Assembly (NCBI RefSeq): GCF_013385425.1
Contig: NZ_JACAQA010000015.1
Coordinates: 62,001 to 126,000 of the forward strand
DNA: 64,000 nt
Direction: 5' to 3'
Origin: Pseudomonas gingeri
GTDB taxonomy: Bacteria; Pseudomonadota; Gammaproteobacteria; Pseudomonadales; Pseudomonadaceae
The notes below the pieces were generated by a model, which made no database searches, was not told where the DNA came from, and worked only from the letters and a program-made list of their open reading frames with translations. How positions within the stretch are numbered: position 1 is the stretch's first letter; each line of letters opens with the position of its first letter. A program made the translations under genes and the position numbers. This document shows positions 1 to 11,639 of the stretch, in pieces.

Positions 1-3000
1 ACCCAGGGCAGCGGAGAAAATATCACGCTGGGAACTGGCAGCACCTTGGATGTGGCAAGCGGCTCCGCTACCGCCACACTCAGTAGTGGTGCGATCACTG
101 CTGCCACCGGCAGTGAGGTCACGCTCAGCGGTAGCACCGATACCATCAGCGGCAGCGGCGCAACGGTCACTATTGAAAACAGTGGCGATACGGTCAGCGC
201 ATCAGGAGACACGATCAATCTGGGTGGTACAGGGCTGTCGGTAGATGCCAACGGCAACAATGACAAGGTCACAGGGGGGATTGACGACACGGTCACCACT
301 CAGGGCAGTGGAGAAAGTGTCACGCTGGGAACTGGCAGTACCCTGGATGTGGCAAGCGGCTCCGCCACCGCCACACTCAGTAGCGGCTCGGTCACTGCGG
401 CCACCGGCAGTGAGGTCACGCTCAGCGGTGGTAGCGATACGATCAGCGGCAGCGGCGCGACGGTCACTATTGAAAACAGTGGCGATACGGTCAACGCATC
501 AGGTGACACGATCAATCTGACTGGCACCGGGCTTACTGTGAATGCCACCGGCAACAATGACACTTTCAGCACTACGAGTAACTCCCCCAGCGATACGATT
601 GATGTGGCGGGAACGGGGGTCACCGTTGATATCAGTGGCGCCACGATCACCATCGCCGCCGGCAGCCAAGTCACCATCGCCGGTAGCAACGACATTATCA
701 ATGCGGGAGGAGATGACACTATCTCGTTCACAGGTAGTGACGACAACCTTACAGGTGGGATCGACGACACCGTCACGACCCAGGGGGCTGGCGAAAATGT
801 CACGCTGGGAACTGGCAGCTATCTGGATGTTGAGAGTGGCTCAACCACGGCAAGCCTCAGCAGCAGTACTTTCGTAGTCGGAGCAGGCAGTGAGGCGACC
901 CTCACCGGTTCAAGCGATACCATCACGGATGGGACCAATACTGCACTGGCCCTAGCCGGTGTGAGCAATAACGACACTGTCACAATGGGCGCTGGTGGCA
1001 CAGTAAGCGTCGCGAACAGCGATCAGGGTGAAGTGATTTACGCGAACGGCGACGCTGTTTCGCTTGGAAATAACACCATTACCACACTCATAGGCAGCAA
1101 CGATCAGGTCAACGGTGGTACTGGCAATACGGTGTCGGTGGTAGGTAACGACACAGTCCAGGGCACGAACGATCTGCTGTATCTCGGTGGCAACGAAACC
1201 CTGACCACCAGCGGCACCGGCATGACGGTTGAAACCAATGCGAACGATGTTGTCGTTGGCTCTGGCGATACGGTCAATGTAGGTGGCAATTTGGCGGCGG
1301 GCCAATCCGCTGGCGATACAACAATGGTGGGAAGTAATGATCTCATCGACGCGACAGGCCGCACGGTGTCGGTGGTGGGTAATGACACGGTCCAGGGCAC
1401 AAACGATCTGCTGTACCTTGGTGGTAGCGAAACCCTGACCACCAGTGGCACCGGCATGACGGTTGAAACCAATGCGAGCGATGTCATCGTTGGTTCTGGC
1501 GATACCGTCAATATAGGCGGCAATTTGGCGGCGGGCCAGTCCGCTGGCGATACAACGATGGTGGGAAGTAACGATCTCATTGATGCGACAGGGCGCACGG
1601 TGTCGGTGGTGGGTAACGACACGGTCCAGGGCACAAACGATCTGCTGTACCTCGGTGGCAGCGAAACCCTGACCACCAACGGCACCGGCATGACAGTTGA
1701 AACCAATGCGAACGATGTTGTCGTTGGTTCTGGCGATACCGTCAATGTGGGCGGCAATCTGGCGGCGGGCCAGTCCGCGGGTGTTACGACGCTGGTGGGA
1801 AGTACCGATATCGTCGATGCGGCTGGCGACGTTATCGATATGAGTGCAGGCAACTCTAAAGATAGCGTCGTCGGTAGTGGTGACAGCATTAATGTGAACG
1901 GAAGTGTCAGCTTCTCGGCTACGAATGACAGCGTCACCGTCGGCTCCGGCGCGAGCCTTAACCTATCGGGTGGCAATGATAGCGTTACCCTCGTTGGGAC
2001 AGGTGATTACCTCGGGCTTCTTGGCGGTACTTACTCGGTAAGTGGCTCGGGCGATACGATTGATACGTCAGCTAACACTCAGGTTGATGCAACAGGCAGC
2101 AACGATGCCTTCAATTTGGGAGTTGATTCCGGGGTAACCGCTGACGGTAGCGGTGATACGTTGAATGGAGAAGGCATCACTAATGGGGATGCCTACGATG
2201 TCAACGGCGGCGGGGACATTTCTGGTGGTGGCGATGAGGGCGGTGGTGATCCCAATCCCAATCCTGATCCCGGCGGTTATGGCTACGGCTATGGCGGCTA
2301 CGGTTTCGCGGTTAGTAAATCCGTGACATTGCCCACGGCAGGCAACAACATTGGTTTCATTGCCCAGTACGACTTGAATCAAGGCAATCAGGCCGCAGCC
2401 GTGGCAGCGGAAAAAGCCTTGCAGCAAGCCGTCGACACGGCGATCTCTATACCGACAGCCGGCAACGGATCGGCCGTACTGGATGGCGCCAAGTTCGATC
2501 AGAAGGTCATCACCTGGAGCCTTGCGGACAGCCAGGGCACTCAGGCCGCACCGTTCAGTGGTTATATGGACAGCACCGACGAATCGGTCGTGCAGGGCGC
2601 ATTCAATACCTGGGCGGCGAGCATGCCAGGCGTGACCTTCGAAGAGGTGTCCGATTCCGCGCAGTCCGATATTCGCGTCGGCTTTGGTGATTTCAACACG
2701 GCCACCACCGGGATTATCGGTTACACCAGCTATCAGGCCAATGACGGCCAGATAGCCCCCGATGCCATCGTCCGGGTAGAGGACCCGACCCAGAACGCGC
2801 TGACGACAGGAGCCGATGGGCAACAGACCTACGTCGGCACCGATGCCACACTTTCTCAGGTGTTGCAGCATGAGATTGGTCATGCGCTGGGCTTGGCAGA
2901 CAACGCCGATAAGAACTCGGTGATGAACTACCAGCTCACGGCCAGCAACCGGACGTTGGACAGCACGGACCTGGTCGGTATCGGTTCGCTCTATGGCGCC

Positions 3001-3159
3001 GGAGCAGGCACCTCACCAGTCGGTAGCAGCGGTGTGAGCCAGTTGATCCAGGCCATGTCCACGTTCAATGCGGATGCCGGGGTTGCCGATACCACGTTGC
3101 TGCCGCCCACCTTGGCGAACAACAACGTGACCTTGAGCGCATCCGCACACGCGGCCTGA
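1..3159 (+). CDS. Repeat-rich secreted protein with C-terminal metzincin-like zinc protease domain (5' end outside window)
   Basis: The frame is open from base 1, so the start lies upstream; 1052 residues are visible. The first ~740 are low-complexity Ser/Gly/Thr/Asp/Asn repeats (SGDT, GSND, GTGL) like a stacked beta-helix or RTX-like stalk, with very few Lys, Arg or Cys. A Gly/Asp/Pro hinge with four tyrosines (Y760, Y762, Y764, Y767) follows. The C-terminal ~280 residues form a globular domain with HEIGHALGLAD (H957, E958, H961, then Asp where serralysins have His) and a downstream SVMNY Met-turn. This fits a matrixin/M10-like zinc peptidase. Length, composition and the TolC-type gene two genes downstream suggest type I export to the cell surface or medium; the export ATPase is not in the window. 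Whether it is an active protease, an adhesin or both cannot be told from sequence. Confidence 0.85.
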   Translation, partial: TQGSGENITLGTGSTLDVASGSATATLSSGAITAATGSEVTLSGSTDTISGSGATVTIENSGDTVSASGDTINLGGTGLSVDANGNNDKVTGGIDDTVTTQGSGESVTLGTGSTLDVASGSATATLSSGSVTAATGSEVTLSGGSDTISGSGATVTIENSGDTVNASGDTINLTGTGLTVNATGNNDTFSTTSNSPSDTIDVAGTGVTVDISGATITIAAGSQVTIAGSNDIINAGGDDTISFTGSDDNLTGGIDDTVTTQGAGENVTLGTGSYLDVESGSTTASLSSSTFVVGAGSEATLTGSSDTITDGTNTALALAGVSNNDTVTMGAGGTVSVANSDQGEVIYANGDAVSLGNNTITTLIGSNDQVNGGTGNTVSVVGNDTVQGTNDLLYLGGNETLTTSGTGMTVETNANDVVVGSGDTVNVGGNLAAGQSAGDTTMVGSNDLIDATGRTVSVVGNDTVQGTNDLLYLGGSETLTTSGTGMTVETNASDVIVGSGDTVNIGGNLAAGQSAGDTTMVGSNDLIDATGRTVSVVGNDTVQGTNDLLYLGGSETLTTNGTGMTVETNANDVVVGSGDTVNVGGNLAAGQSAGVTTLVGSTDIVDAAGDVIDMSAGNSKDSVVGSGDSINVNGSVSFSATNDSVTVGSGASLNLSGGNDSVTLVGTGDYLGLLGGTYSVSGSGDTIDTSANTQVDATGSNDAFNLGVDSGVTADGSGDTLNGEGITNGDAYDVNGGGDISGGGDEGGGDPNPNPDPGGYGYGYGGYGFAVSKSVTLPTAGNNIGFIAQYDLNQGNQAAAVAAEKALQQAVDTAISIPTAGNGSAVLDGAKFDQKVITWSLADSQGTQAAPFSGYMDSTDESVVQGAFNTWAASMPGVTFEEVSDSAQSDIRVGFGDFNTATTGIIGYTSYQANDGQIAPDAIVRVEDPTQNALTTGADGQQTYVGTDATLSQVLQHEIGHALGLADNADKNSVMNYQLTASNRTLDSTDLVGIGSLYGAGAGTSPVGSSGVSQLIQAMSTFNADAGVADTTLLPPTLANNNVTLSASAHAA
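4..560 (+). repeat. 99-residue (297-bp) coding repeat, two copies plus a partial third
   Basis: Copy 1 begins at base 4 and copy 2 at 301, exactly 297 bp apart. The encoded blocks both contain LGTGSTLDVASGSATATL and TVTIENSGDTV. A partly matching unit restarts near 781 after a divergent insert of about 60 codons. The repeats lie within the secreted protein. Confidence 0.85.
1132..1833 (+). repeat. Three tandem 234-bp (78-residue) coding repeats
   Basis: Units begin at 1132, 1366 and 1600, each 234 bp, and each encodes a block opening VSVVGNDTVQGTNDLLYL. The copies are nearly identical at the DNA level, with mostly silent or single changes. The last ~20 codons of copy 3 diverge. This indicates recent duplication or gene conversion inside the stalk. 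Confidence 0.92.
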
Positions 3160-3293: not shown

Positions 3294-4121
3294 TTGGCTA
3301 CTCAGTTTCATGCGATATCAGGTTTACCGCGTTCGGGGTCGACACTGCTGTCGGCACTGTTGAGCCAGAACCCGCGCTTTTCGGCGGCGATGACCAGCCC
3401 GGTTGCCGTATTGGTCGGCTCCGTGCACGGGAAAATGTGCGGTGGCGAATTCGGTGGTTTTTTTGATGACAGCAAGCGTGCAACGATCCTGCGCGCTGTT
3501 GTCGAGTCTTACTACGCCGATAAAATCGGCACGTTGTCCGACAACCCGGTTGTCTTCGATACCAACCGTACCTGGACGGGGCGGGCAGCGTTATGGGGGG
3601 CGATGTATCCCCAGTCACGCATTATCTGTTGTGTCCGCGACGTCGGTTGGATTATCGACAGCGTCGAACGAATGCTCGCCAAGAACCCCTTGCAGTTATC
3701 ACGCATGTTCAAATTTCAGCCGGGTAGTTCGGTCTATGCCCGGGCGGAAATCCTGATGAATTCGGACAGCGGCCTGATTGGATTGGCCTGGAGCAATCTG
3801 CGTGAGGCCTGGTTTGGCGAGCAGGCGAAGCGCTTGATCCTGGTACCCTACGATCACTTGGTCAAAGAGCCGCAGCGTACCCTGAGTCGGCTCTATGCCG
3901 AGTTGGGCGAGCCCTTGTTTGAGCACGATTTGCAAAACGTGGTGTATGACGAGCCGGATTATGACGCCCACCTCGGCATGCCCGGCTTGCATGCCGTACG
4001 CAAGAATGTCGAGTTCCAGGCCCGCAAACTCTGCATCCCACCGGATATTTTCGCTCGATATTCAACGACCGGCTTTTGGAGCAATGCCGAACTCAACACG
4101 CATGGCGTGACGATTCTGTGA
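3294..4121 (+). CDS. Sulfotransferase family protein
   Basis: 275 residues, close to the usual size of PAPS-dependent sulfotransferases. Residues ~9-22 carry the 5'-phosphosulfate-binding loop (SGLPRSGSTLLSALL). The C-terminal part contains the LVPYDHLVKEPQRTLSRLY pattern common in bacterial and tyrosylprotein sulfotransferase-like proteins. The start is a TTG placed five bases after AAGGAG (3283-3288); no ATG fits better. The family moves sulfate from PAPS to hydroxyl groups of sugars, lipids or tyrosines. Its place between a secreted repeat protein and a TolC-type channel suggests the exported protein, or a glycan on it, may be the acceptor. That is inference by analogy with RaxST-RaxX of Xanthomonas. 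Confidence 0.85.
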   Translation: MATQFHAISGLPRSGSTLLSALLSQNPRFSAAMTSPVAVLVGSVHGKMCGGEFGGFFDDSKRATILRAVVESYYADKIGTLSDNPVVFDTNRTWTGRAALWGAMYPQSRIICCVRDVGWIIDSVERMLAKNPLQLSRMFKFQPGSSVYARAEILMNSDSGLIGLAWSNLREAWFGEQAKRLILVPYDHLVKEPQRTLSRLYAELGEPLFEHDLQNVVYDEPDYDAHLGMPGLHAVRKNVEFQARKLCIPPDIFARYSTTGFWSNAELNTHGVTIL

Positions 4122-4126
4122 GCGTG

Positions 4127-5614
4127 ATGGGTTCGGAAAGCATGCTGAAAATTCGTAAAGCCCTGTCGTTCAATTTGAGGTTAGGCGTCACTTTTCTTAT
4201 CGGTACGGGCTCGGTGTGTGCGGCAGGGTTCGGTCCCGCAGATCCACTGCGTCAATTTGGTAGCGTCCCTGCCACTGCGGCCAACCACATGTTCGATTCG
4301 TCGCCGGCAGTCGGCGGCTGCGTGGATAATTCGCAGGTGGACCTGGCCTTGCTGGACATCGTCTCCAGCGCCTTGTGCCACAATCCGAAAACCCGGGAGG
4401 CCTGGGCCAACGTCAAGGTCCAAACCGCCCAGGTCGGTGTCGCCAAGGCGGCCTACCTGCCCACCTTGAACGGCACATTGCAAGAGGCGAAAGACAGTTC
4501 GACCAGTCATGGCACCTCGGCCGATCCCTTTGTCGTCCAGTCCGACAGTCGCTACCAGAACGCCGCGCTGACCTTGAATTGGGTGCTCTACGACTTCGGC
4601 GCCCGCTCGGCGAGCGTCGACTATGCCCAGAGCAAGCTGGCTTCCGCCTTGGCCGGGCAGGACAGTGCCTTGCAGACGGTCTTTGCCAGTACGGTCAAAG
4701 ATTACTATGCGGCCTTCGTTGCCCAGAAAAACCGGCAAGCCACACAACATATCGAAGCTGATGCGAAACAGGTATTGGACGCGGCCACGCTCCGGGTTCG
4801 CCATGGTGTGGCGGCGGTCAGTGATCAGCTACAGGCCCAGACGTCTTATTTCCAGGCCACCTTCAACCGCAACAAAGCGGAAGGGGATTGGAAGACCGCG
4901 TTGGGGCAGGTGGCTATCGATATGGGGCGACGTCCCAATATGCCTTTGCATCTGTTGGGCGAGGATGACGTGGCACCACCTGACACGAGGTTTGAGCAGT
5001 CGGTCGAGGAGTTGTTGCAAACGGCGCAGCAGCGGCATCCCTCGTTGATTGCTGCCCGCGCGGAACTGGCGGCGGCGCAGGCGAACGAGGACATGATCAG
5101 TGCGCAAGGGCGGCCCACCATCAGCTTTGTCGGCAAATACAGCTACGACAATCAACCGCAGAGCTCCGGGGTTGGCCAGCAGTTTCTGGGTGAGACAGTC
5201 CGGGACCGCTCCGTGGCGATTCAAGTCAGCGTCCCGCTTTTCGAGGGCTTTACCCGGACCTATCAGGTCCGCGGTGCGCAGGCGCAAGTTGAAGGCAAGG
5301 AGGCCAGTCTGAACGATGCCGAGTTGCAAGTGGCCTCCAGCGTCTGGTCGGACTATCAGACGTTGAAAGTCGGCACGCAGAACGTGCGGACCAGCCAGGA
5401 AATTCTCGACAGTGCCGACCAGGCCTTTGATGCGGCGCAGGCGCGCTACGCCAAGGGCGTGACTGGCATCCTCGAGGTCATCACGACCCAGACGGCACTG
5501 GCCAACGCCGAGCAGCAACAGATCAGCGCTTTGGCTGGGTGGCAGAATGCACGCATTCAACTGGCATCGAGTTTGGGCAGTCTGGATTTGAGGAGCCTGT
5601 ATCCGACGTTATAA
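4127..5614 (+). CDS. TolC-family outer-membrane channel of type I secretion
   Basis: The frame is open from 4076 but the first part overlaps the sulfotransferase gene. Likely starts are ATG 4127, five bases after that gene's stop, or ATG 4142, which gives the compact signal peptide MLKIRKALSFN... ending near CAAG. The ~470-residue mature part has two outer-membrane efflux protein domains with long Gln/Ala-rich helices, a YDFGARSASVDYAQ segment and a second-half AQARYAKGVTGILEVITTQTAL segment, as in TolC. It would form the outer-membrane tunnel of a tripartite exporter. The inner-membrane ATPase and adaptor are absent from the window apart from adaptor scraps downstream. Tight spacing with the sulfotransferase implies co-transcription. 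Confidence 0.88.
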   Translation: MGSESMLKIRKALSFNLRLGVTFLIGTGSVCAAGFGPADPLRQFGSVPATAANHMFDSSPAVGGCVDNSQVDLALLDIVSSALCHNPKTREAWANVKVQTAQVGVAKAAYLPTLNGTLQEAKDSSTSHGTSADPFVVQSDSRYQNAALTLNWVLYDFGARSASVDYAQSKLASALAGQDSALQTVFASTVKDYYAAFVAQKNRQATQHIEADAKQVLDAATLRVRHGVAAVSDQLQAQTSYFQATFNRNKAEGDWKTALGQVAIDMGRRPNMPLHLLGEDDVAPPDTRFEQSVEELLQTAQQRHPSLIAARAELAAAQANEDMISAQGRPTISFVGKYSYDNQPQSSGVGQQFLGETVRDRSVAIQVSVPLFEGFTRTYQVRGAQAQVEGKEASLNDAELQVASSVWSDYQTLKVGTQNVRTSQEILDSADQAFDAAQARYAKGVTGILEVITTQTALANAEQQQISALAGWQNARIQLASSLGSLDLRSLYPTL

Positions 5615-5724: not shown

Positions 5725-6267
5725 ATGAAATTTTCGCTCTTGAAAAAACAGTCCAGTTACCTGTGGTTTACGTTTGGACTGGTGTTATGTCACGGGATAT
5801 ATATGACATATTTTTTTCCACATGAATGGGCGGAGTCCGCCAATGCCAGAACGTTTGTGGATGCGGTAGCTGTTGTTGTTCCAGTGCTTCAGGGTCTAAA
5901 AAATCACACCCCTCCCTATACACCTTATTGGGGCGTTTTTTATGCAAGCTTTTGGTGTTTGGTTCCCCTGTTTTTTGCCGCTGGAGCAATGTCTACATTT
6001 TTCCTTTTTACTAAGGAAAGCTATGAGAAAATCAAGCTTAATAAGCCGCTAGGATACATTATTGGGTTTTTGTTTTTTCTCATCGTCTTTATGATCCCGT
6101 TTTTTCTTCCGTTTATTGGGGATTTCCCCTATCCTCTGATGAATCAAATGAGTCGTTTTTTACCCCTGCGATTATTGGCTTGGGGCACGACAGCGATAAT
6201 CCCATTTGCCTTAGGGTGGTCTGTCGGTTGCACTTATCAACGATTTATTGTTAGCAGAAAATACTGA
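5725..6267 (+). CDS. Unknown 180-residue multi-pass membrane protein
   Basis: I do not recognise a family. There are about four hydrophobic helices (near residues 12-30, 68-92, 107-128 and 148-170), with basic residues between and after them, so it is an inner-membrane protein. The start ATG follows GAGGGGG at 5711-5717. Base composition is much more AT-rich than the TolC gene just upstream, marking the left edge of a foreign-looking block. Its topology and its position beside secretion genes resemble bacteriocin or toxin immunity proteins, but no motif proves this. Similarity to the two paralogous membrane proteins downstream is too weak to claim. Confidence 0.7.
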   Translation: MKFSLLKKQSSYLWFTFGLVLCHGIYMTYFFPHEWAESANARTFVDAVAVVVPVLQGLKNHTPPYTPYWGVFYASFWCLVPLFFAAGAMSTFFLFTKESYEKIKLNKPLGYIIGFLFFLIVFMIPFFLPFIGDFPYPLMNQMSRFLPLRLLAWGTTAIIPFALGWSVGCTYQRFIVSRKY

Positions 6268-6273
6268 AGGGGC

Positions 6274-6396
6274 ACGGGTTTGCCAGCCTCAGAGAGCGGC
6301 AAGCCGAGCATCGAGCGTATCAAGAAACACCTTCGTCTTGCTCGGCGTAAAGCATCTGGAAGGCAGCAGAGCGTAGATCGGCGCAGGAGCGCTGTG
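6274..6396 (-). pseudogene. Duplicated 3' end of a lysR-type regulator gene
   Basis: These 123 bases align without gaps to 9488-9610, the last 35 codons and trailing bases of the intact LysR gene; I count 11 differences by hand (about 91% identity). The reading frame is preserved on the minus strand, ending ARLAAL then stop at 6289-6291. There is no upstream part, so it is a fragment. Homology stops abruptly at the start of the adaptor fragment at 6399, showing a recombination joint. Confidence 0.88.
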
Positions 6397-6398
6397 TC

Positions 6399-6620
6399 AT
6401 GTCGATTTCGCAGGATGCGGTGAAGGATGACAAGTTGGGATTGATTTATCCGGCTCGGATTCAGTTCGGTGCGCATGTTATTGTGGCGGATGGCAAGGAT
6501 GTTTCGTTGGAATCGGGTATGTCGAGTTCGGTGGAGATCAAGACCGAGCAGAGAGGGATTATTGAGTATTTGTTGACACCGTTGTTGAAGTGTCAGCGTG
6601 AGGCATTGGGGGAGCGCTAA
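6399..6620 (+). pseudogene. C-terminal fragment of a HlyD-family type I secretion adaptor
   Basis: The 73 codons match the extreme C-terminus of type I membrane-fusion proteins: DAVKDDKLGLIYPARI, a GMSSSVEIKTEQR block, then IIEYLLTPLLK and a final ER. Full proteins of this family are about 400-480 residues, so about five-sixths is missing. There is no ribosome-binding site at ATG 6399. It is fused at its 5' end to the lysR fragment. It could in principle be translated as a small protein but is best called a remnant. Confidence 0.85.
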
Positions 6621-6710: not shown

Positions 6711-7361
6711 ATGGATTTGCCTATTACTCCAGCCCCCGAAGCGGGGCGTCCGATAAAGCCTATTCCTTGGTTTCGAACCGGGCCCTTTGTGCTGATTAGT
6801 TCAGCTACGATTACTGTTTATGCATTGTTGGGTAATTTTTCTCCGTATTATAGAGCTGTTGTGGATGTTTTTATAAGTCCGATAATTGATAGTCTGGGGT
6901 GGGCTTTTCTGAATATTCGAACCTCGCCTATGAGTGGGGAGCTTGACCCTATTTACTATCGTAATTTGATGGGGTTGTGTGTGCTCTTTAGCGCTTTGTA
7001 TAACATTGCATCTGCTTTGTATATGGTTAAGGTTAAGAAAATAGCGGCTGCCAGTTGCGAAGATGCGCATAAAAATATAATGATTATGCAAGGGGTTGGT
7101 GTCAAAAAAGGGTGGGTGTTATTGCATCTTGGTGTGTATTTTATTGTAGGTGGAATTGCAGCTTTTACCACATTTATTTTTTTGAATTGTATGTTTGGCT
7201 GGTTCGAATTTTTGCCTTCAAGGTATGACATGCTATTTACGTTGATCGTCTGCTTGGCATTGATTTTGCCGTCAAGTTTCTGTGTGGCGATGTGGTCGAT
7301 TGTTGGGCAGCTTGTTTTTTTTGATTTTCGGAAAATTTTTGAATTTATTGTAAAAAAATAG
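6711..7361 (+). CDS. Membrane protein, paralogue of the 7793-8434 product
   Basis: 216 residues with about four hydrophobic segments (near 24-48, 84-106, 133-158 and 172-200), an acidic/proline-rich N-terminal tail and a lysine-rich C-terminus. It is preceded by AAAAAGGAA at 6694-6702. The middle section (YNIASALYMVK, SCEDAH, KKGWVLLHLGVYF) aligns residue by residue with the downstream membrane protein, so the two are diverged duplicates. I do not recognise a named family. Very AT-rich DNA and flanking adaptor-gene scraps on both sides point to horizontal acquisition as a cassette. An immunity-like role is plausible but unproven. Confidence 0.72.
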   Translation: MDLPITPAPEAGRPIKPIPWFRTGPFVLISSATITVYALLGNFSPYYRAVVDVFISPIIDSLGWAFLNIRTSPMSGELDPIYYRNLMGLCVLFSALYNIASALYMVKVKKIAAASCEDAHKNIMIMQGVGVKKGWVLLHLGVYFIVGGIAAFTTFIFLNCMFGWFEFLPSRYDMLFTLIVCLALILPSSFCVAMWSIVGQLVFFDFRKIFEFIVKK

Positions 7362-7421
7362 GGAGTTTGGTCATGGCGAAAAAAACAGCTTTCGATATTT
7401 TTTGGGGGAAGTTCACAGCAC

Positions 7422-7535
7422 CTGGAACCGGGGATGTCGAGTTCGGTGGAGATCAAGACCGAGCAACGACGGATTATTGAATATTTGTTGACGCCGTTGT
7501 TGAAGTATCAGCGTGAGGCGTTGAGAGAAAGGTAA
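7422..7535 (+). pseudogene. Second, shorter C-terminal fragment of a HlyD-family adaptor
   Basis: The 114 bases correspond exactly in length to 6507-6620 and differ at about 15 positions by hand count. In the adaptor frame they encode LEPGMSSSVEIKTEQRR, IIEYLLTPLLK and a terminal RER before TAA 7533-7535. Upstream sequence is unrelated. A 35-codon frame starting at ATG 7373 crosses this fragment in a different frame and is probably chance. The residues agree better with a functional adaptor end (EQRRIIEY) than those of the first copy. Confidence 0.85.
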
Positions 7536-7748
7536 ATTCGATATTTGGGTTTCCCATAAGCGCTTTTCTTATTTTTTCTAGACGGGTGATGAAATGTTAA
7601 GTTGGATTGGGGCTGTGCCGAGATTTCGCAAGAAAAGTGCTTTTATTTTTTTGTTAAACCCCAAAGGAAGTCTCTGATGTGTTGCCTTTTTCTTGCAATA
7701 ACTGCTTTGCAAGCCGGAATCATTATCGACCAAGAAGGAAATTTCAGC

Positions 7749-7796
7749 ATGAAAATTCGTACGCGGCTAAAAAAATTTTTGGCAAACCCGCTATGA
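7749..7796 (+). CDS. Possible 15-codon leader peptide coupled to the membrane protein gene
   Basis: ATG 7749 has a good AAGGAA Shine-Dalgarno at 7735-7740 and encodes a basic 15-residue peptide. Its TGA overlaps the ATG of the membrane gene (ATGA at 7793-7796). A run of seven A residues inside it means a one-base slip would fuse the two frames into one protein with a basic N-terminus. It is either a translational coupler or the true, frameshifted N-terminus. Confidence 0.35.
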   Translation: MKIRTRLKKFLANPL

Positions 7797-8434
7797 CGCA
7801 AATTGTGCCTGGCTCATCCGCAGGAGAACTTCGTGAACAGTGGTTTGACGCCACTCCAATATATGTGGTTTTTCCTGTACTTATAGTATTTTATGCGTTT
7901 TCAGGATTTTATTTTCATCGATTAAATGGAGTTATGAACGAGTTCCTTACTCCCCTAATTAATGGGCTTAGCTTCATTGGAATAAAGATCGCCCCCATCT
8001 TGGTAGGACCGTTTGACGAAATCTTTTTAACAAACCTTAGCGGATTATCTTTTCTCGGTGCCGCCACATATAACCTCGCCTCAATTATATATATAATAAA
8101 AAATAAAAGATTTGCCGGGCTAAGTTGTATTGAAACCCATGCATTGCTAATGAAGCGAAAGCAATGGGAGGCAAAAAAAGCGTGGATAATGCTGCATTTA
8201 AACATATATATTGGCGTAAACGCTATCGTAGTATTTATTGTATTGTGCTTTCTGAATAGCATATTCCACTGGCAAGTTTTTACGATAGCTAGCAACGGAA
8301 TACTAACGGCATGCTTAGTATCAGTATATTTTTGTTTCTCGGGCATGATGCCAGTTTATCTGTTCTCTGTGGTTTTAAGGTTTGTAGTGTTTGATGTTTC
8401 TTGCATTTTTAAAGGAAAGCAAACTAATCGGTAA
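7793..8434 (+). CDS. Membrane protein, paralogue of the 6711-7361 product
   Basis: 213 residues from ATG 7793; the frame is open further upstream but without a good ribosome site. About four hydrophobic helices are predicted. It shares with its paralogue the YN(I/L)AS..Y(M/I)(V/I)K segment, a conserved SC-E-H stretch, a lysine-rich cytoplasmic loop and K(K)(G/A)W(V/I)(L/M)LHL. It is AT-rich and has no recognised family. It lies immediately after the second adaptor scrap, repeating the order scrap then membrane gene seen at 6399-7361, as expected from tandem cassette duplication. Confidence 0.72.
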   Translation: MTQIVPGSSAGELREQWFDATPIYVVFPVLIVFYAFSGFYFHRLNGVMNEFLTPLINGLSFIGIKIAPILVGPFDEIFLTNLSGLSFLGAATYNLASIIYIIKNKRFAGLSCIETHALLMKRKQWEAKKAWIMLHLNIYIGVNAIVVFIVLCFLNSIFHWQVFTIASNGILTACLVSVYFCFSGMMPVYLFSVVLRFVVFDVSCIFKGKQTNR

Positions 8435-8435
8435 T

Positions 8436-8648
8436 ATGGACACAATCATAATCAAAGGTGCGTTTTTAGGAGAAATAGCGGCGTTAAGTCAAGATGCTAA
8501 AGCAGCAGGCAATGCCGGAAATTACCTTTTTTGTAGGAAAGTGTTTTTCTTTATATCTCTCGTTCTATGGGGGGGCGTTTTTTATGCTAATCAATTAAGG
8601 TGTTTTGATTCAAAGAGGCGTGACAAGGTCCGAAATGCCAAAAGTTGA
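8436..8648 (+). CDS. Small unknown protein with one membrane helix
   Basis: 70 residues starting one base after the stop of the membrane gene, so likely translationally coupled. The N-terminal ~30 residues are mixed and Gly/Ala-rich (GEIAALSQDAKAAGNAGNY). A single hydrophobic helix (near 35-52) and a basic tail follow. The nearest Shine-Dalgarno-like AAAGGAAAG is too far away, at 8410-8418. It is AT-rich like its neighbours. I do not recognise it; a truncated remnant is also possible. Confidence 0.4.
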   Translation: MDTIIIKGAFLGEIAALSQDAKAAGNAGNYLFCRKVFFFISLVLWGGVFYANQLRCFDSKRRDKVRNAKS

Positions 8649-9442: not shown

Positions 9443-9502
9443 AGCGTTTGCTGGCTGATTAAAGCCTTTGAGATCGGCAACACCCCTACGGGTTTGCTGG
9501 CC

Positions 9503-10390
9503 TCAGAGAGCGGCAAGCCGAGCACCAAGCGCATCAAGGAACACCTTCGTCTTGCTCGGCGTAAAGCGCCGGGAAGGCAGCAGGGCGTAGATCGGCGCAG
9601 AAGCGCTGTGCCAGTCACGCAGGATATGCACCAGGCGACCTGCCGCCAGGTCGTCTGCCACATCGACACTGGATTTGAGCATGATCCCGTGGCCATCAAT
9701 CGCCCAGTCGCGCACGGCATCCCCGCTGTTGGCGTGCAGCCGTGAGCGCGGCTGCAGCTCAATCACTTCGTTTCCCGGACCTTCCAGGCGCCAGGGCAGG
9801 GACGGGTCGTCGTAGCGCAGACACCCATGACGCTCCAGATCCCGAATACGCTCAGGCTCCCCATGACGTTCGAGATAGGCGGGCGCAGCCACCAGAATCC
9901 GCCGATTCTCAGCCAGCTTGCGCAGGATCGCAGTGCTATCCCGAGGTTGGCCGATACGCACCGCGACATCGATCCGTTCGTACGTCAGATCGATCAGGCG
10001 GTCGTCGAGCCTGAGTTCGATATCCAGCTTGGGATGGCGCTCGACCAGCTCGGCGACCAAGGGCACCAGGTGAATACGCCCGAAAGAAATGGGTGAACTG
10101 ACCCGGAGCATGCCGAACGGCTCTTCACCGCCCATCGTCATGCGGGACTCCGCCGCCTCCAATTCCTCGAGTATCCGATCAACGTGAACCATCAGGGCCA
10201 AGCCCTCATTGGTCGCCGACAGTGTTCGTGTGGTCCGGTTGATCAGCCGTTGTCCTGCTCGTCGTTCCAGTGCCATGAGCCGTTTGCTGACCACCGCCAG
10301 CCCTACACCCAGATCACGCGCCGCCGCTGACAGGCTGCCGCAGACCAGGATCCGTTGGAAGGTACGCAGCTCGTTGAGGTCGTCCAACAT
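9503..10390 (-). CDS. LysR-family transcriptional regulator, divergent from an old yellow enzyme
   Basis: 295 residues. The N-terminal winged HTH spans residues ~5-62 (GSLSAAARDLGVGLAVVSKRL), followed by a LysR effector-binding domain of the class with SGDAVRDWAIDGHGI. This subgroup commonly represses or activates a divergent oxidoreductase. The old yellow enzyme gene starts 127 bp away on the other strand, and the shared intergenic region is the likely operator. Its last 123 bases recur at 6274-6396. Confidence 0.92.
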   Translation of the reverse strand: MLDDLNELRTFQRILVCGSLSAAARDLGVGLAVVSKRLMALERRAGQRLINRTTRTLSATNEGLALMVHVDRILEELEAAESRMTMGGEEPFGMLRVSSPISFGRIHLVPLVAELVERHPKLDIELRLDDRLIDLTYERIDVAVRIGQPRDSTAILRKLAENRRILVAAPAYLERHGEPERIRDLERHGCLRYDDPSLPWRLEGPGNEVIELQPRSRLHANSGDAVRDWAIDGHGIMLKSSVDVADDLAAGRLVHILRDWHSASAPIYALLPSRRFTPSKTKVFLDALGARLAAL

Positions 10391-10517: not shown

Positions 10518-11639
10518 ATGACTGCTGACTCAGCCCTGTTCACACCGACACTTGTAGGCGAACAATCCGTCCTTCACCGCGTCGTGATGGCGCCGATGAC
10601 ACGCGCCCGCAGCACCCAGCCGGGTGACATCCCCAATGCGCTGAACGCCCGTTACTATGCACAGCGGGCGTCGGCGGCCCTGATCGTCTCGGAGGCGGCG
10701 CAGATCTCGCCGCAAGGCAAGGGCTACTCCTTTACTCCGGGGATTCATAGCCAGGAGCAGGTGGCCGGATGGCGCTTGATCACCGATGCCGTACATGCCG
10801 CGGGTGGGCGCATCTTTCTGCAGCTTTGGCATGTCGGCCGGATATCCCATCCCGATTTCCACAACGGCGAGTTGCCGGTGGCGCCTTCGGCGGTTCCCTT
10901 CGAAGCCAAGATCTGGAAGGTGAATCCTGCGACTGGTCTGGGCGAGATGGTGGATTGCCCGACACCGCGTGCGTTGGCCAAAGAAGAAATCCACGGCATC
11001 GTCAACGACTTCCGCATCGCCGCGCGCAACGCCATGGACGCGGGCTTCGACGGTGTCGAGATTCACGGTGCGAACGGCTACCTCGTCGACCAGTTTCTGC
11101 GCACTACCGCCAATACCCGAACCGATGAATACGGCGGCTCGCGGGAGAACAGGCTGCGTTTCCTCAAGGAAGTGGTCAGTGCCGTTGCAGAGGAAGTGGG
11201 GGCTGAACGCACAGCCATTCGCCTGGCTCCCTTCCTGACCGCACGCGGTATGGACTGCCCCGATATTCTGCCGACGATCCTTGAGGCCACTGCGTTCCTG
11301 CAAACGCTGGGCATTGCCTACCTGCATCTGGTCGAAGCCGATTGGGAAGACGCGCCGCAGTTCACCGAAGCGTTCCGGGCCGATATCCGGGCGCGTTTCC
11401 AACGGCCCATCATCGTTGCCGGCAAGTACGATCTGAAACGGGCCAATTGGGTCATCGACAAGGGGTACGCCGATCTGGTCGCCTTTGGCCGTCCTTTTGT
11501 TGCCAACCCTGACCTGCCAAGACGCCTGCTGGAAAATCTCCCCCTGGCCGAGTTTGCCGGCGACACGCTGTTCGGCGGTGACGAGCGCGGTTACTCGGAC
11601 TATCCCGCGTGGCCGGCGTACAACGACGCTATTGCCTGA
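10518..11639 (+). CDS. Old yellow enzyme-type alkene reductase (NADH:flavin oxidoreductase)
   Basis: 373 residues, a typical FMN-dependent TIM-barrel ene-reductase of the NemA/XenB group. Visible are the MAPMTR motif near residue 24, the substrate-anchoring pair in EIHGANGYL (H183, N186), the TRTDEYGGS segment and a C-terminal phosphate-binding FGRPFVANPDL loop. It reduces activated C=C bonds, nitro groups or electrophilic quinones using NAD(P)H in the cytoplasm. It is divergent from the LysR gene, which probably controls it in response to electrophiles. Confidence 0.94.
   Translation: MTADSALFTPTLVGEQSVLHRVVMAPMTRARSTQPGDIPNALNARYYAQRASAALIVSEAAQISPQGKGYSFTPGIHSQEQVAGWRLITDAVHAAGGRIFLQLWHVGRISHPDFHNGELPVAPSAVPFEAKIWKVNPATGLGEMVDCPTPRALAKEEIHGIVNDFRIAARNAMDAGFDGVEIHGANGYLVDQFLRTTANTRTDEYGGSRENRLRFLKEVVSAVAEEVGAERTAIRLAPFLTARGMDCPDILPTILEATAFLQTLGIAYLHLVEADWEDAPQFTEAFRADIRARFQRPIIVAGKYDLKRANWVIDKGYADLVAFGRPFVANPDLPRRLLENLPLAEFAGDTLFGGDERGYSDYPAWPAYNDAIA

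What the first reader, a model, noticed from the sequence alone, without database searches (positions are those of the whole stretch)
6711..8434. Two diverged paralogous membrane proteins in a cassette array
The products of 6711-7361 and 7793-8434 align through their central regions (YN.AS..Y..K, SC-E-H, KK.W..LHL) though overall identity is low. Each gene is preceded by a scrap of the same adaptor gene. Repeated scrap-plus-membrane-gene units look like serial capture of immunity genes for different toxin alleles, as in CDI or bacteriocin loci. I do not know this family as described.
Basis: partly seen in the sequence, partly recalled or inferred. Interest (0 to 1): 0.75.

Follow-up and report, generated by a model that had tools for sequence, protein, structure and literature searches.

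The report
Orphan immunity-gene array beside toxin exporter
Two related membrane-protein genes in a Pseudomonas genome look like leftover antidotes to rival versions of a giant secreted toxin, each still carrying torn ends of the exporter gene and the toxin gene that once flanked it.

Summary
The two genes (6711-7361, 7793-8434) are full-length paralogues (32% over 209 aa, E 5e-32). Each follows a scrap of the same hlyD 3' end; the intact hlyD of a type I secretion (T1SS) locus lies about 17 kb upstream of the first scrap. In intact loci of two other Pseudomonas genomes the relatives sit exactly between hlyD and the giant gene. There exporter proteins are 84-92% identical, but the slot membrane protein 30% and the substrate's hydrophobic N-terminus about 28-32%. 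A close relative lacks 18.9 kb of the secretion locus yet keeps both genes. Best reading: orphan immunity genes of a T1SS-exported polymorphic toxin with its variable domain at the N-terminus, a mirror image of CDI/Rhs, left by exchange of toxin-immunity cassettes through hlyD homology. Toxicity and protection are inferred, not shown. It is a new variant of a known kind (orphan-immunity arrays of CDI, Rhs, T6SS); no family searched fits the membrane proteins.

The parts
46..3159 (+). 3' part of the giant T1SS-substrate gene (repeats, C-terminal matrixin/M10 domain); the gene begins upstream of the window (G000:C7 about 54.0-54.4 kb)
   Evidence: Pfam PF00413 E 2.6e-14; upstream part read in L003
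3294..4121 (+). sulfotransferase-family gene, present in 4 of 4 loci that keep the substrate C-terminus (G000, G044, G333, G394)
   Evidence: PF13469 E 3.7e-16; tblastn 83-97%
4076..5614 (+). tolC-like outer-membrane channel gene of the T1SS (start may be 4133)
   Evidence: PF02321 E 5.5e-54; tblastn 84-96% at the same place in G044, G333, G394
5725..6267 (+). P0003, unrelated 180-aa membrane protein, possible further orphan immunity gene
   Evidence: of G044, G140, G333, G362, G394 found only in G140; no Pfam family
6274..6399 (.). 126-bp copy of the LysR 3' end region (window 9488-9613, 90%)
6396..6620 (+). hlyD 3'-end scrap 1 (HlyD residues 400-473 and stop)
   Evidence: tblastn 89%, E 7e-35; alignment
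6711..7361 (+). P0001, 216-aa membrane protein, proposed orphan immunity protein type 1 (G394 type)
7373..7420 (+). 5' scrap of a giant substrate gene of G394 type (FWGKFTA)
   Evidence: 27-bp local DNA alignment within 7393-7419, score 34; 0 of 500 mononucleotide shuffles reach it, best shuffle 22
7421..7535 (+). hlyD 3'-end scrap 2 (about HlyD residues 436-473 and stop)
   Evidence: (D5)
7793..8434 (+). P0002, 213-aa membrane protein, proposed orphan immunity protein type 2 (G333 type)
8436..8531 (+). 5' scrap of a giant substrate gene of G333 type (codons 26-57)
   Evidence: blastn 88.5% over 96 bp, E 2.7e-29; tblastn 78%, E 2e-9
8539..8648 (+). 3' scrap of FamB, a third slot-gene family that is intact at this place in G140
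9503..10390 (-). intact LysR gene whose 3' end matches the copy at 6274-6399
   Evidence: PF03466 E 2.2e-36

Best explanation
The two genes are orphan immunity genes of a type I secretion-based polymorphic toxin locus. In an intact locus the order is ABC transporter, hlyD, slot gene(s), giant substrate, sulfotransferase, tolC (shown). The substrate has a conserved matrixin C-terminus, a divergent repeat region and an N-terminus that differs most, in kind, between loci (shown). A C-terminal secretion signal would explain why the variable part is N-terminal and the immunity gene upstream (inferred). New immunity-toxin cassettes enter by recombination through the hlyD 3' end; the old cassette is pushed aside as hlyD scrap + immunity gene + toxin 5' scrap (inferred from junctions). 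For the P0001/P0002 family the cognate N-terminal domains are hydrophobic and glycine-rich, so the likeliest action is insertion into a rival's inner membrane, blocked by the multi-spanning immunity protein there (inferred). Retained orphans would protect against kin that still fire the older toxin (inferred).
For: A P0001 relative (59%) in G394 and a P0002 relative (64%) in G333 lie directly between hlyD and the giant gene. Between these two loci: ABC 92%, HlyD 90%, TolC 84%, sulfotransferase 87%, M10 domain 72%, but slot protein 30% and substrate residues 1-165 28% (32% in a whole-protein alignment). The two N-termini are homologous (local score 119 against 45 +/- 8; 0 of 2000 shuffles reach it), while that of G044, which has no P0001/P0002 relative, shows no similarity to either (633 and 866 of 2000 shuffles reach the score). 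Each window gene is followed by the toxin scrap of its own type. G140 lacks 18.9 kb from abc codon 85 into tolC and has no full HlyD of this kind, yet keeps P0003, P0001, P0002 (97.6% DNA over the stretch) and an intact FamB. dN/dS 0.16 (P0001) and 0.17 (P0002) between G000 and G140. G362 shows the same build on a larger scale: two units of distinct genes, each ending in a 748-bp piece (97% alike) made of repeat tail plus the last 386 bp of hlyD. Of six genomes examined, hlyD scraps occur in the three with arrays (G000, G140, G362) and not in G044, G333, G394. Slots also hold an LprI-type gene (Pfam 'Lysozyme inhibitor LprI', E 2e-14).
Against: No toxicity or protection was measured. The substrate N-termini have no Pfam match; the AlphaFold2 model of one is unusable (pLDDT 35); the P0001 model is weak (pLDDT 61) and finds no PDB fold. 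Cognate pairing rests on two intact loci. The repeat region of the substrate diverges too (34-56% between G394 and G333 in 300-residue bins), so variability is not confined to the N-terminus, and unrelated N-termini also show 28% in forced global alignment. One of seven family members (G333:C4) lies away from any such locus, on a stretch with phage tail genes. Only 11 and 18 DNA differences underlie the dN/dS values, and time before the loss in G140 cannot be separated from time after. The 257 bp before P0002 match only G140 among the other stretches searched, so its unit is not a simple copy of the G333 one. No promoter-like excess near the genes (5 found, 7.2 expected).
Confidence: 0.7

Rival explanations
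1. The slot membrane proteins are toxin-specific accessories (chaperone, maturation or export helper, as hlyC is for RTX toxins; recalled), not immunity proteins; they vary with the substrate because they must recognise it.
For: Position between exporter and substrate genes and co-variation with the substrate fit an accessory as well.
Against: The genes stay open and under apparent constraint where the matching substrate, and in G140 the exporter, is gone. Slot proteins differ in kind from locus to locus (multi-span membrane, two hydrophobic stretches, LprI-type, weakly propeller-like), which suits neutralisation of different toxins better than one export task.
Confidence: 0.15
2. The units are decaying debris of recombination; the membrane genes are intact by chance and do nothing.
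For: Surrounding hlyD, LysR, toxin and FamB pieces are plainly broken. FamB is a scrap in the window genome but whole in G140. No promoter excess.
Against: Both genes are full length in G000 and G140 with dN/dS 0.16-0.17, while the three changes in the neighbouring hlyD scrap all alter the protein (dS 0, small numbers).
Confidence: 0.1
3. The giant proteins are surface adhesins or matrix proteins with antigenic variation; the membrane proteins serve display or anchoring.
For: Long repeat regions and T1SS export recall giant adhesins (recalled). No toxin domain is recognised by Pfam. The repeat region varies as well as the N-terminus.
Against: N-termini differ in kind (hydrophobic glycine-rich; GHSLGG motif; others), slot genes change with them, an LprI-type gene is present in 3 of 5 loci with intact hlyD, and old slot genes are kept without the substrate.
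Confidence: 0.09

Closest known systems
Orphan immunity-gene arrays of Vibrio cholerae T6SS clusters (Kirchberger 2017, PMC5361080; passages read)
   Same: Arrays of heterogeneous immunity genes beside the secretion locus, explained by new effector-immunity modules displacing old effectors while old immunity genes stay.
   Different: Here the exporter is T1SS, cassettes follow hlyD, each window orphan carries scraps on both sides (hlyD 3' end before, toxin 5' end after), and the variable toxin part is N-terminal.
[quoted passage not shown] passages read)
   Same: Constant gene fragment plus polymorphic toxin piece plus immunity gene in serial modules.
   Different: CDI/Rhs toxins are C-terminal with immunity downstream; here the order is reversed, the constant scrap is the adaptor gene hlyD and, in the window, the toxin is reduced to a few dozen codons or fewer.
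Cdz system of Caulobacter (Garcia-Bayona 2017, PMC5380434; passages read; gene order from PMC7690452)
   Same: T1SS exporter with membrane-active toxin and a small inner-membrane immunity protein.
   Different: Cdz toxins are small (about 5-10 kDa) with immunity after the toxins; here the substrates are 1806-1953 aa in three intact loci, with the slot gene before them. The word 'orphan' does not occur in the main text of that paper.
CDI ionophore toxins and CdiI proteins (PMC11630599; passages read)
   Same: Membrane-acting toxin with very hydrophobic immunity proteins that typically share about 30% identity within a group and are type-specific.
   Different: CdiI there are 72-100 residues, two helices; here 209-219 residues, four hydrophobic stretches in each of the two measured, and delivery is not by CdiA/CdiB.
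Colicin V-like microcins (recalled, no call)
   Same: T1SS-exported antibacterial peptides with a small membrane immunity protein.
   Different: Small peptides cleaved from a leader, not giant proteins with a variable N-terminal domain.

Membership tests
Polymorphic toxin system with orphan immunity modules (works like) | constant secretion parts, hypervariable toxin region and adjacent variable gene | tested here: met
   G333 against G394: 84-92% for exporter proteins, 30% and 28% for slot protein and substrate N-terminus; caveat: the repeat region is 34-56%
Polymorphic toxin system with orphan immunity modules (works like) | orphan modules flanked by fragments of the constant or toxin genes | tested here: met
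   window, G140 and G362 arrays
Polymorphic toxin system with orphan immunity modules (works like) | toxin activity neutralised by the cognate immunity protein | not testable with these tools
   needs expression and competition assays
Type I secretion system | ABC transporter + HlyD adaptor + TolC channel in one locus | tested here: met
   PF00664, PF00005, PF03412 and PF13437; PF02321 outer membrane efflux protein
RTX proteins | GGxGxD nonapeptide repeats in the substrate | tested here: not met
   no match in 4 of 4 substrates examined
Cdz bacteriocins | toxins of about 5-10 kDa, immunity gene after the toxin genes | tested here: not met
   substrates of 1806, 1940 and 1953 aa with the slot gene before them
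CdiI immunity to CDI ionophores | encoded after cdiA of a CdiB/CdiA two-partner system, 72-100 residues | tested here: not met
   T1SS locus; 209-219 residues
LprI lysozyme inhibitor (another slot gene) | Pfam PF07007 profile | tested here: met
   E 2.1e-14, 54.2 bits against cut-off 22, for the G000 copy; inhibition of lysozyme not tested

The most novel reading that the evidence does not exclude
A type I secretion-borne polymorphic toxin system of inverted polarity: toxin domain at the N-terminus, constant metalloprotease-bearing C-terminus for export, immunity gene upstream, and cassettes exchanged through the hlyD 3' end, so that strains accumulate immunity arrays and can lose the weapon while keeping the shields (G140).
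Probability: 0.58. Interest if true: 0.75.

Novelty: new variant of a known kind. Interest (0 to 1): 0.62.

Why it matters
If true, cassette exchange with immunity memory extends to type I secretion, for which a review passage I read names Cdz as the contact-dependent example (PMC7690452). It gives a ready experiment: naturally matched pairs (G394 type, G333 type), naturally mismatched orphans, and a natural non-producer (Pseudomonas sp. QS1027) that should be immune. It would also show that the adaptor gene serves as the recombination anchor, and give a role to membrane-protein families that Pfam and NCBIfam do not cover.

Tried and rejected
Family and structure look-ups for P0001/P0002 led nowhere: no Pfam match, only far-below-cut-off NCBIfam matches, no PDB sequence match with the 7-row profile, AlphaFold2 model of pLDDT 61 with no PDB fold at E below 1. 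A model of a substrate N-terminus had pLDDT 35 and was not used. The idea that phages or plasmids carry the family was not supported: no relative in viral contigs, none in phage records with the G333:C4 gene as query, none in plasmid records with P0002. Relatives of the LprI-linked N-terminal domain of G362 were not found in PDB, plasmids or phages, and 1 of 298 genomes gave one weak, stop-broken hit; a lysozyme nature of that domain is only a guess. The substrate N-terminus of G394 had no plasmid relative. Promoter scan: no excess. The T1SS on plasmid Rms149 (45% HlyD) has a glycosyltransferase and a hypothetical gene between hlyD and a giant gene; set aside as a different system. CDI membership was rejected because the locus is T1SS; RTX membership because the nonapeptide repeats are absent. 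On checking, I found that the substrate's repeat region diverges as well as its N-terminus; I lowered the main confidence from 0.72 to 0.70 and the novel case from 0.60 to 0.58 for that.

Paper searches listed no description of a T1SS polymorphic toxin with orphan immunity genes; several lists were capped (for example 20 of 168 papers, 25 of 162, 15 of 103), only open-licence PMC papers are held, and I saw listings plus found passages of eight papers and the outline with abstract of one (PMC9484751). The held text of Zhang 2012 (PMC3482391) has no occurrence of 'type I secretion', 'T1SS' or 'HlyD'. [quoted passage not shown]

Full report
Check. The window is G000:C7:62001-126000 of a 7.13-Mb genome. 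P0001 (6711-7361, 216 aa) and P0002 (7793-8434, 213 aa) align over 209 residues at 32%, E 5e-32. By a plain Kyte-Doolittle scan each has four stretches above the threshold, though not at the same four places in both, so the number of membrane spans is not settled. No Pfam family matches either; the NCBIfam hits are far below their cut-offs.

The scraps. At E <= 0.001 the HlyD end encoded before each gene occurs three times in the genome: in the intact gene at C7:50279-51697 and in the two scraps. Intact hlyD follows an ABC transporter with a C39-like N-terminal domain. Behind it come a weakly propeller-like protein (Pfam hits below cut-off), an LprI-type protein, a 137-aa protein and a giant gene that runs into the window and ends at 3159 with a matrixin domain. 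After P0001 27 bp resemble the start of the giant gene of G394 (0 of 500 shuffles reach the score) and the likeness stops where the second hlyD scrap begins. After P0002 96 bp match the giant gene of G333 at 88.5%. So each unit reads hlyD 3' end, membrane gene, toxin 5' end.

Homologues. A profile of the two genes found 7 members in 4 of 398 Pseudomonas genomes: two in G000, two in G140, two in G333, one in G394. Six of 7 lie in this locus or its remnant. One (G333:C4) lies on a stretch with phage tail genes, about 4.4 kb from the nearest one tested (4 of 4 such neighbours tested match PHROGs tail families), with no hlyD scrap. HlyD of this kind (E <= 1e-150) is in 5 of 398 genomes. A search with the substrate C-terminus in 293 relatives spanning 81 genera found it in G000 and G044 only; G333 and G394 also have it but are not among those matches, so that sample does not cover the genus.

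Intact loci. G333 and G394 have one ORF, a P0002-type and a P0001-type respectively, between hlyD and the giant gene. G044 has an LprI-type gene, a 124-aa ORF, FamB and a 169-aa ORF there. G362 keeps abc and hlyD, followed by FamB with a 132-aa ORF, then a 138-aa gene, the propeller-like gene and a GHSLGG-motif substrate start, then an LprI-type gene with another substrate start, then ORFs of 289 and 173 aa; no M10 domain or TolC was matched in the fetched 31.9 kb. Its two substrate starts end in the same kind of junction: 748 bp at 97% identity made of repeat tail plus the last 386 bp of hlyD. FamB was found in 2 of 298 genomes (G044, G140) and in G362, each time in this locus, with a scrap in the window. 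The 137/138-aa and propeller-like genes accompany the GHSLGG-type domain in both G000 and G362. The lipase reading of that motif is recalled; Pfam gave no match for the G362 protein.

Co-variation. G333 against G394: ABC 92%, HlyD 90%, sulfotransferase 87%, TolC 84%, M10 72%, slot protein 30%, substrate residues 1-165 28%. In a whole-protein alignment the first 165 residues are 32%, the repeat region 34-56% and the last 284 residues 72%, so the gradient runs along the protein rather than breaking sharply after the N-terminus. The two N-termini are nevertheless homologous (BLASTP E 8e-7; 0 of 2000 shuffles) and rich in glycine and alanine with hydrophobic stretches. G044's N-terminus shows no similarity to either (633 and 866 of 2000 shuffles reach the score).

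Shield without weapon. In G140 a junction joins abc after codon 85 to the window-5299 position inside tolC, so that 18,929 bp of the G000 arrangement are absent; no full HlyD of this kind is in the assembly, whose only other match is a 44% HlyD on another contig. Yet P0003, P0001 and P0002 are intact, and FamB, which in the window is a 3' scrap, is complete. G000-G140 dN/dS: P0001 0.008/0.051, P0002 0.014/0.082, P0003 0.012/0.044; thioesterase 0.009/0.090 and LysR 0.017/0.136 for comparison; the hlyD scrap has three changes, all altering the protein. The counts are small, and the G140 assembly is a draft.

History. The array with the thioesterase-like gene lies between two direct copies of the LysR 3' region (6274-6399 and 9488-9613, 90%), as single-crossover integration of a foreign version of the locus would leave; 10% divergence speaks against a fresh duplication (inference). 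The arrangement is shared with G140 and so probably predates their split.

Mechanism. Shown: gene order, co-variation, scraps, persistence. Inferred: that the substrate is an antibacterial toxin, that the N-terminal domain acts on membranes, that P0001/P0002 neutralise it in the inner membrane, and that cassettes move by recombination through hlyD and repeat homology. Compared with known kinds it works like orphan-immunity arrays of T6SS (PMC5361080, passages) and CDI/Rhs (PMC3150448, passages), but on T1SS and in mirror orientation; it is not a Cdz system or a CDI system by the tests listed.

Noticed in passing
L003:11019-11390 (G000:C7:54019-54390): The start of the window strain's giant substrate gene lies in another frame than the rest (ORF 11019-11348, then the long frame), so it may be frame-broken or misassembled.
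   Followed up: partly
L003:13478-14380: The same giant protein (3589 aa from its long frame's first start codon, nearly twice the others) contains internally a domain 73% identical to the N-terminal GHSLGG-motif domain of a G362 cassette, as if a new N-terminal cassette had been stacked on an old one in frame.
   Followed up: partly
window 5725-6267: P0003, a 180-aa membrane protein after tolC, present in G000 and G140 but not in G044, G333, G362, G394; possibly a further orphan immunity gene.
   Followed up: partly
window 3294-4121: A sulfotransferase-family gene lies between substrate and tolC in 4 of 4 loci that keep the substrate C-terminus; its role in the operon is unknown.
   Followed up: no
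L016:14335-14994 (G333:C4): A P0002-type gene on a stretch with phage tail genes, with no hlyD or toxin scrap found, in a genome that also has an intact locus with its own P0002-type gene.
   Followed up: partly
window 1109-1810: Three tandem 234-nt repeats (86-88% identity to the first) inside the substrate's repeat region.
   Followed up: no
L039 (plasmid Rms149, NC_007100): A distinct T1SS locus with the order ABC, HlyD, glycosyltransferase, hypothetical, giant calcium-binding protein.
   Followed up: no
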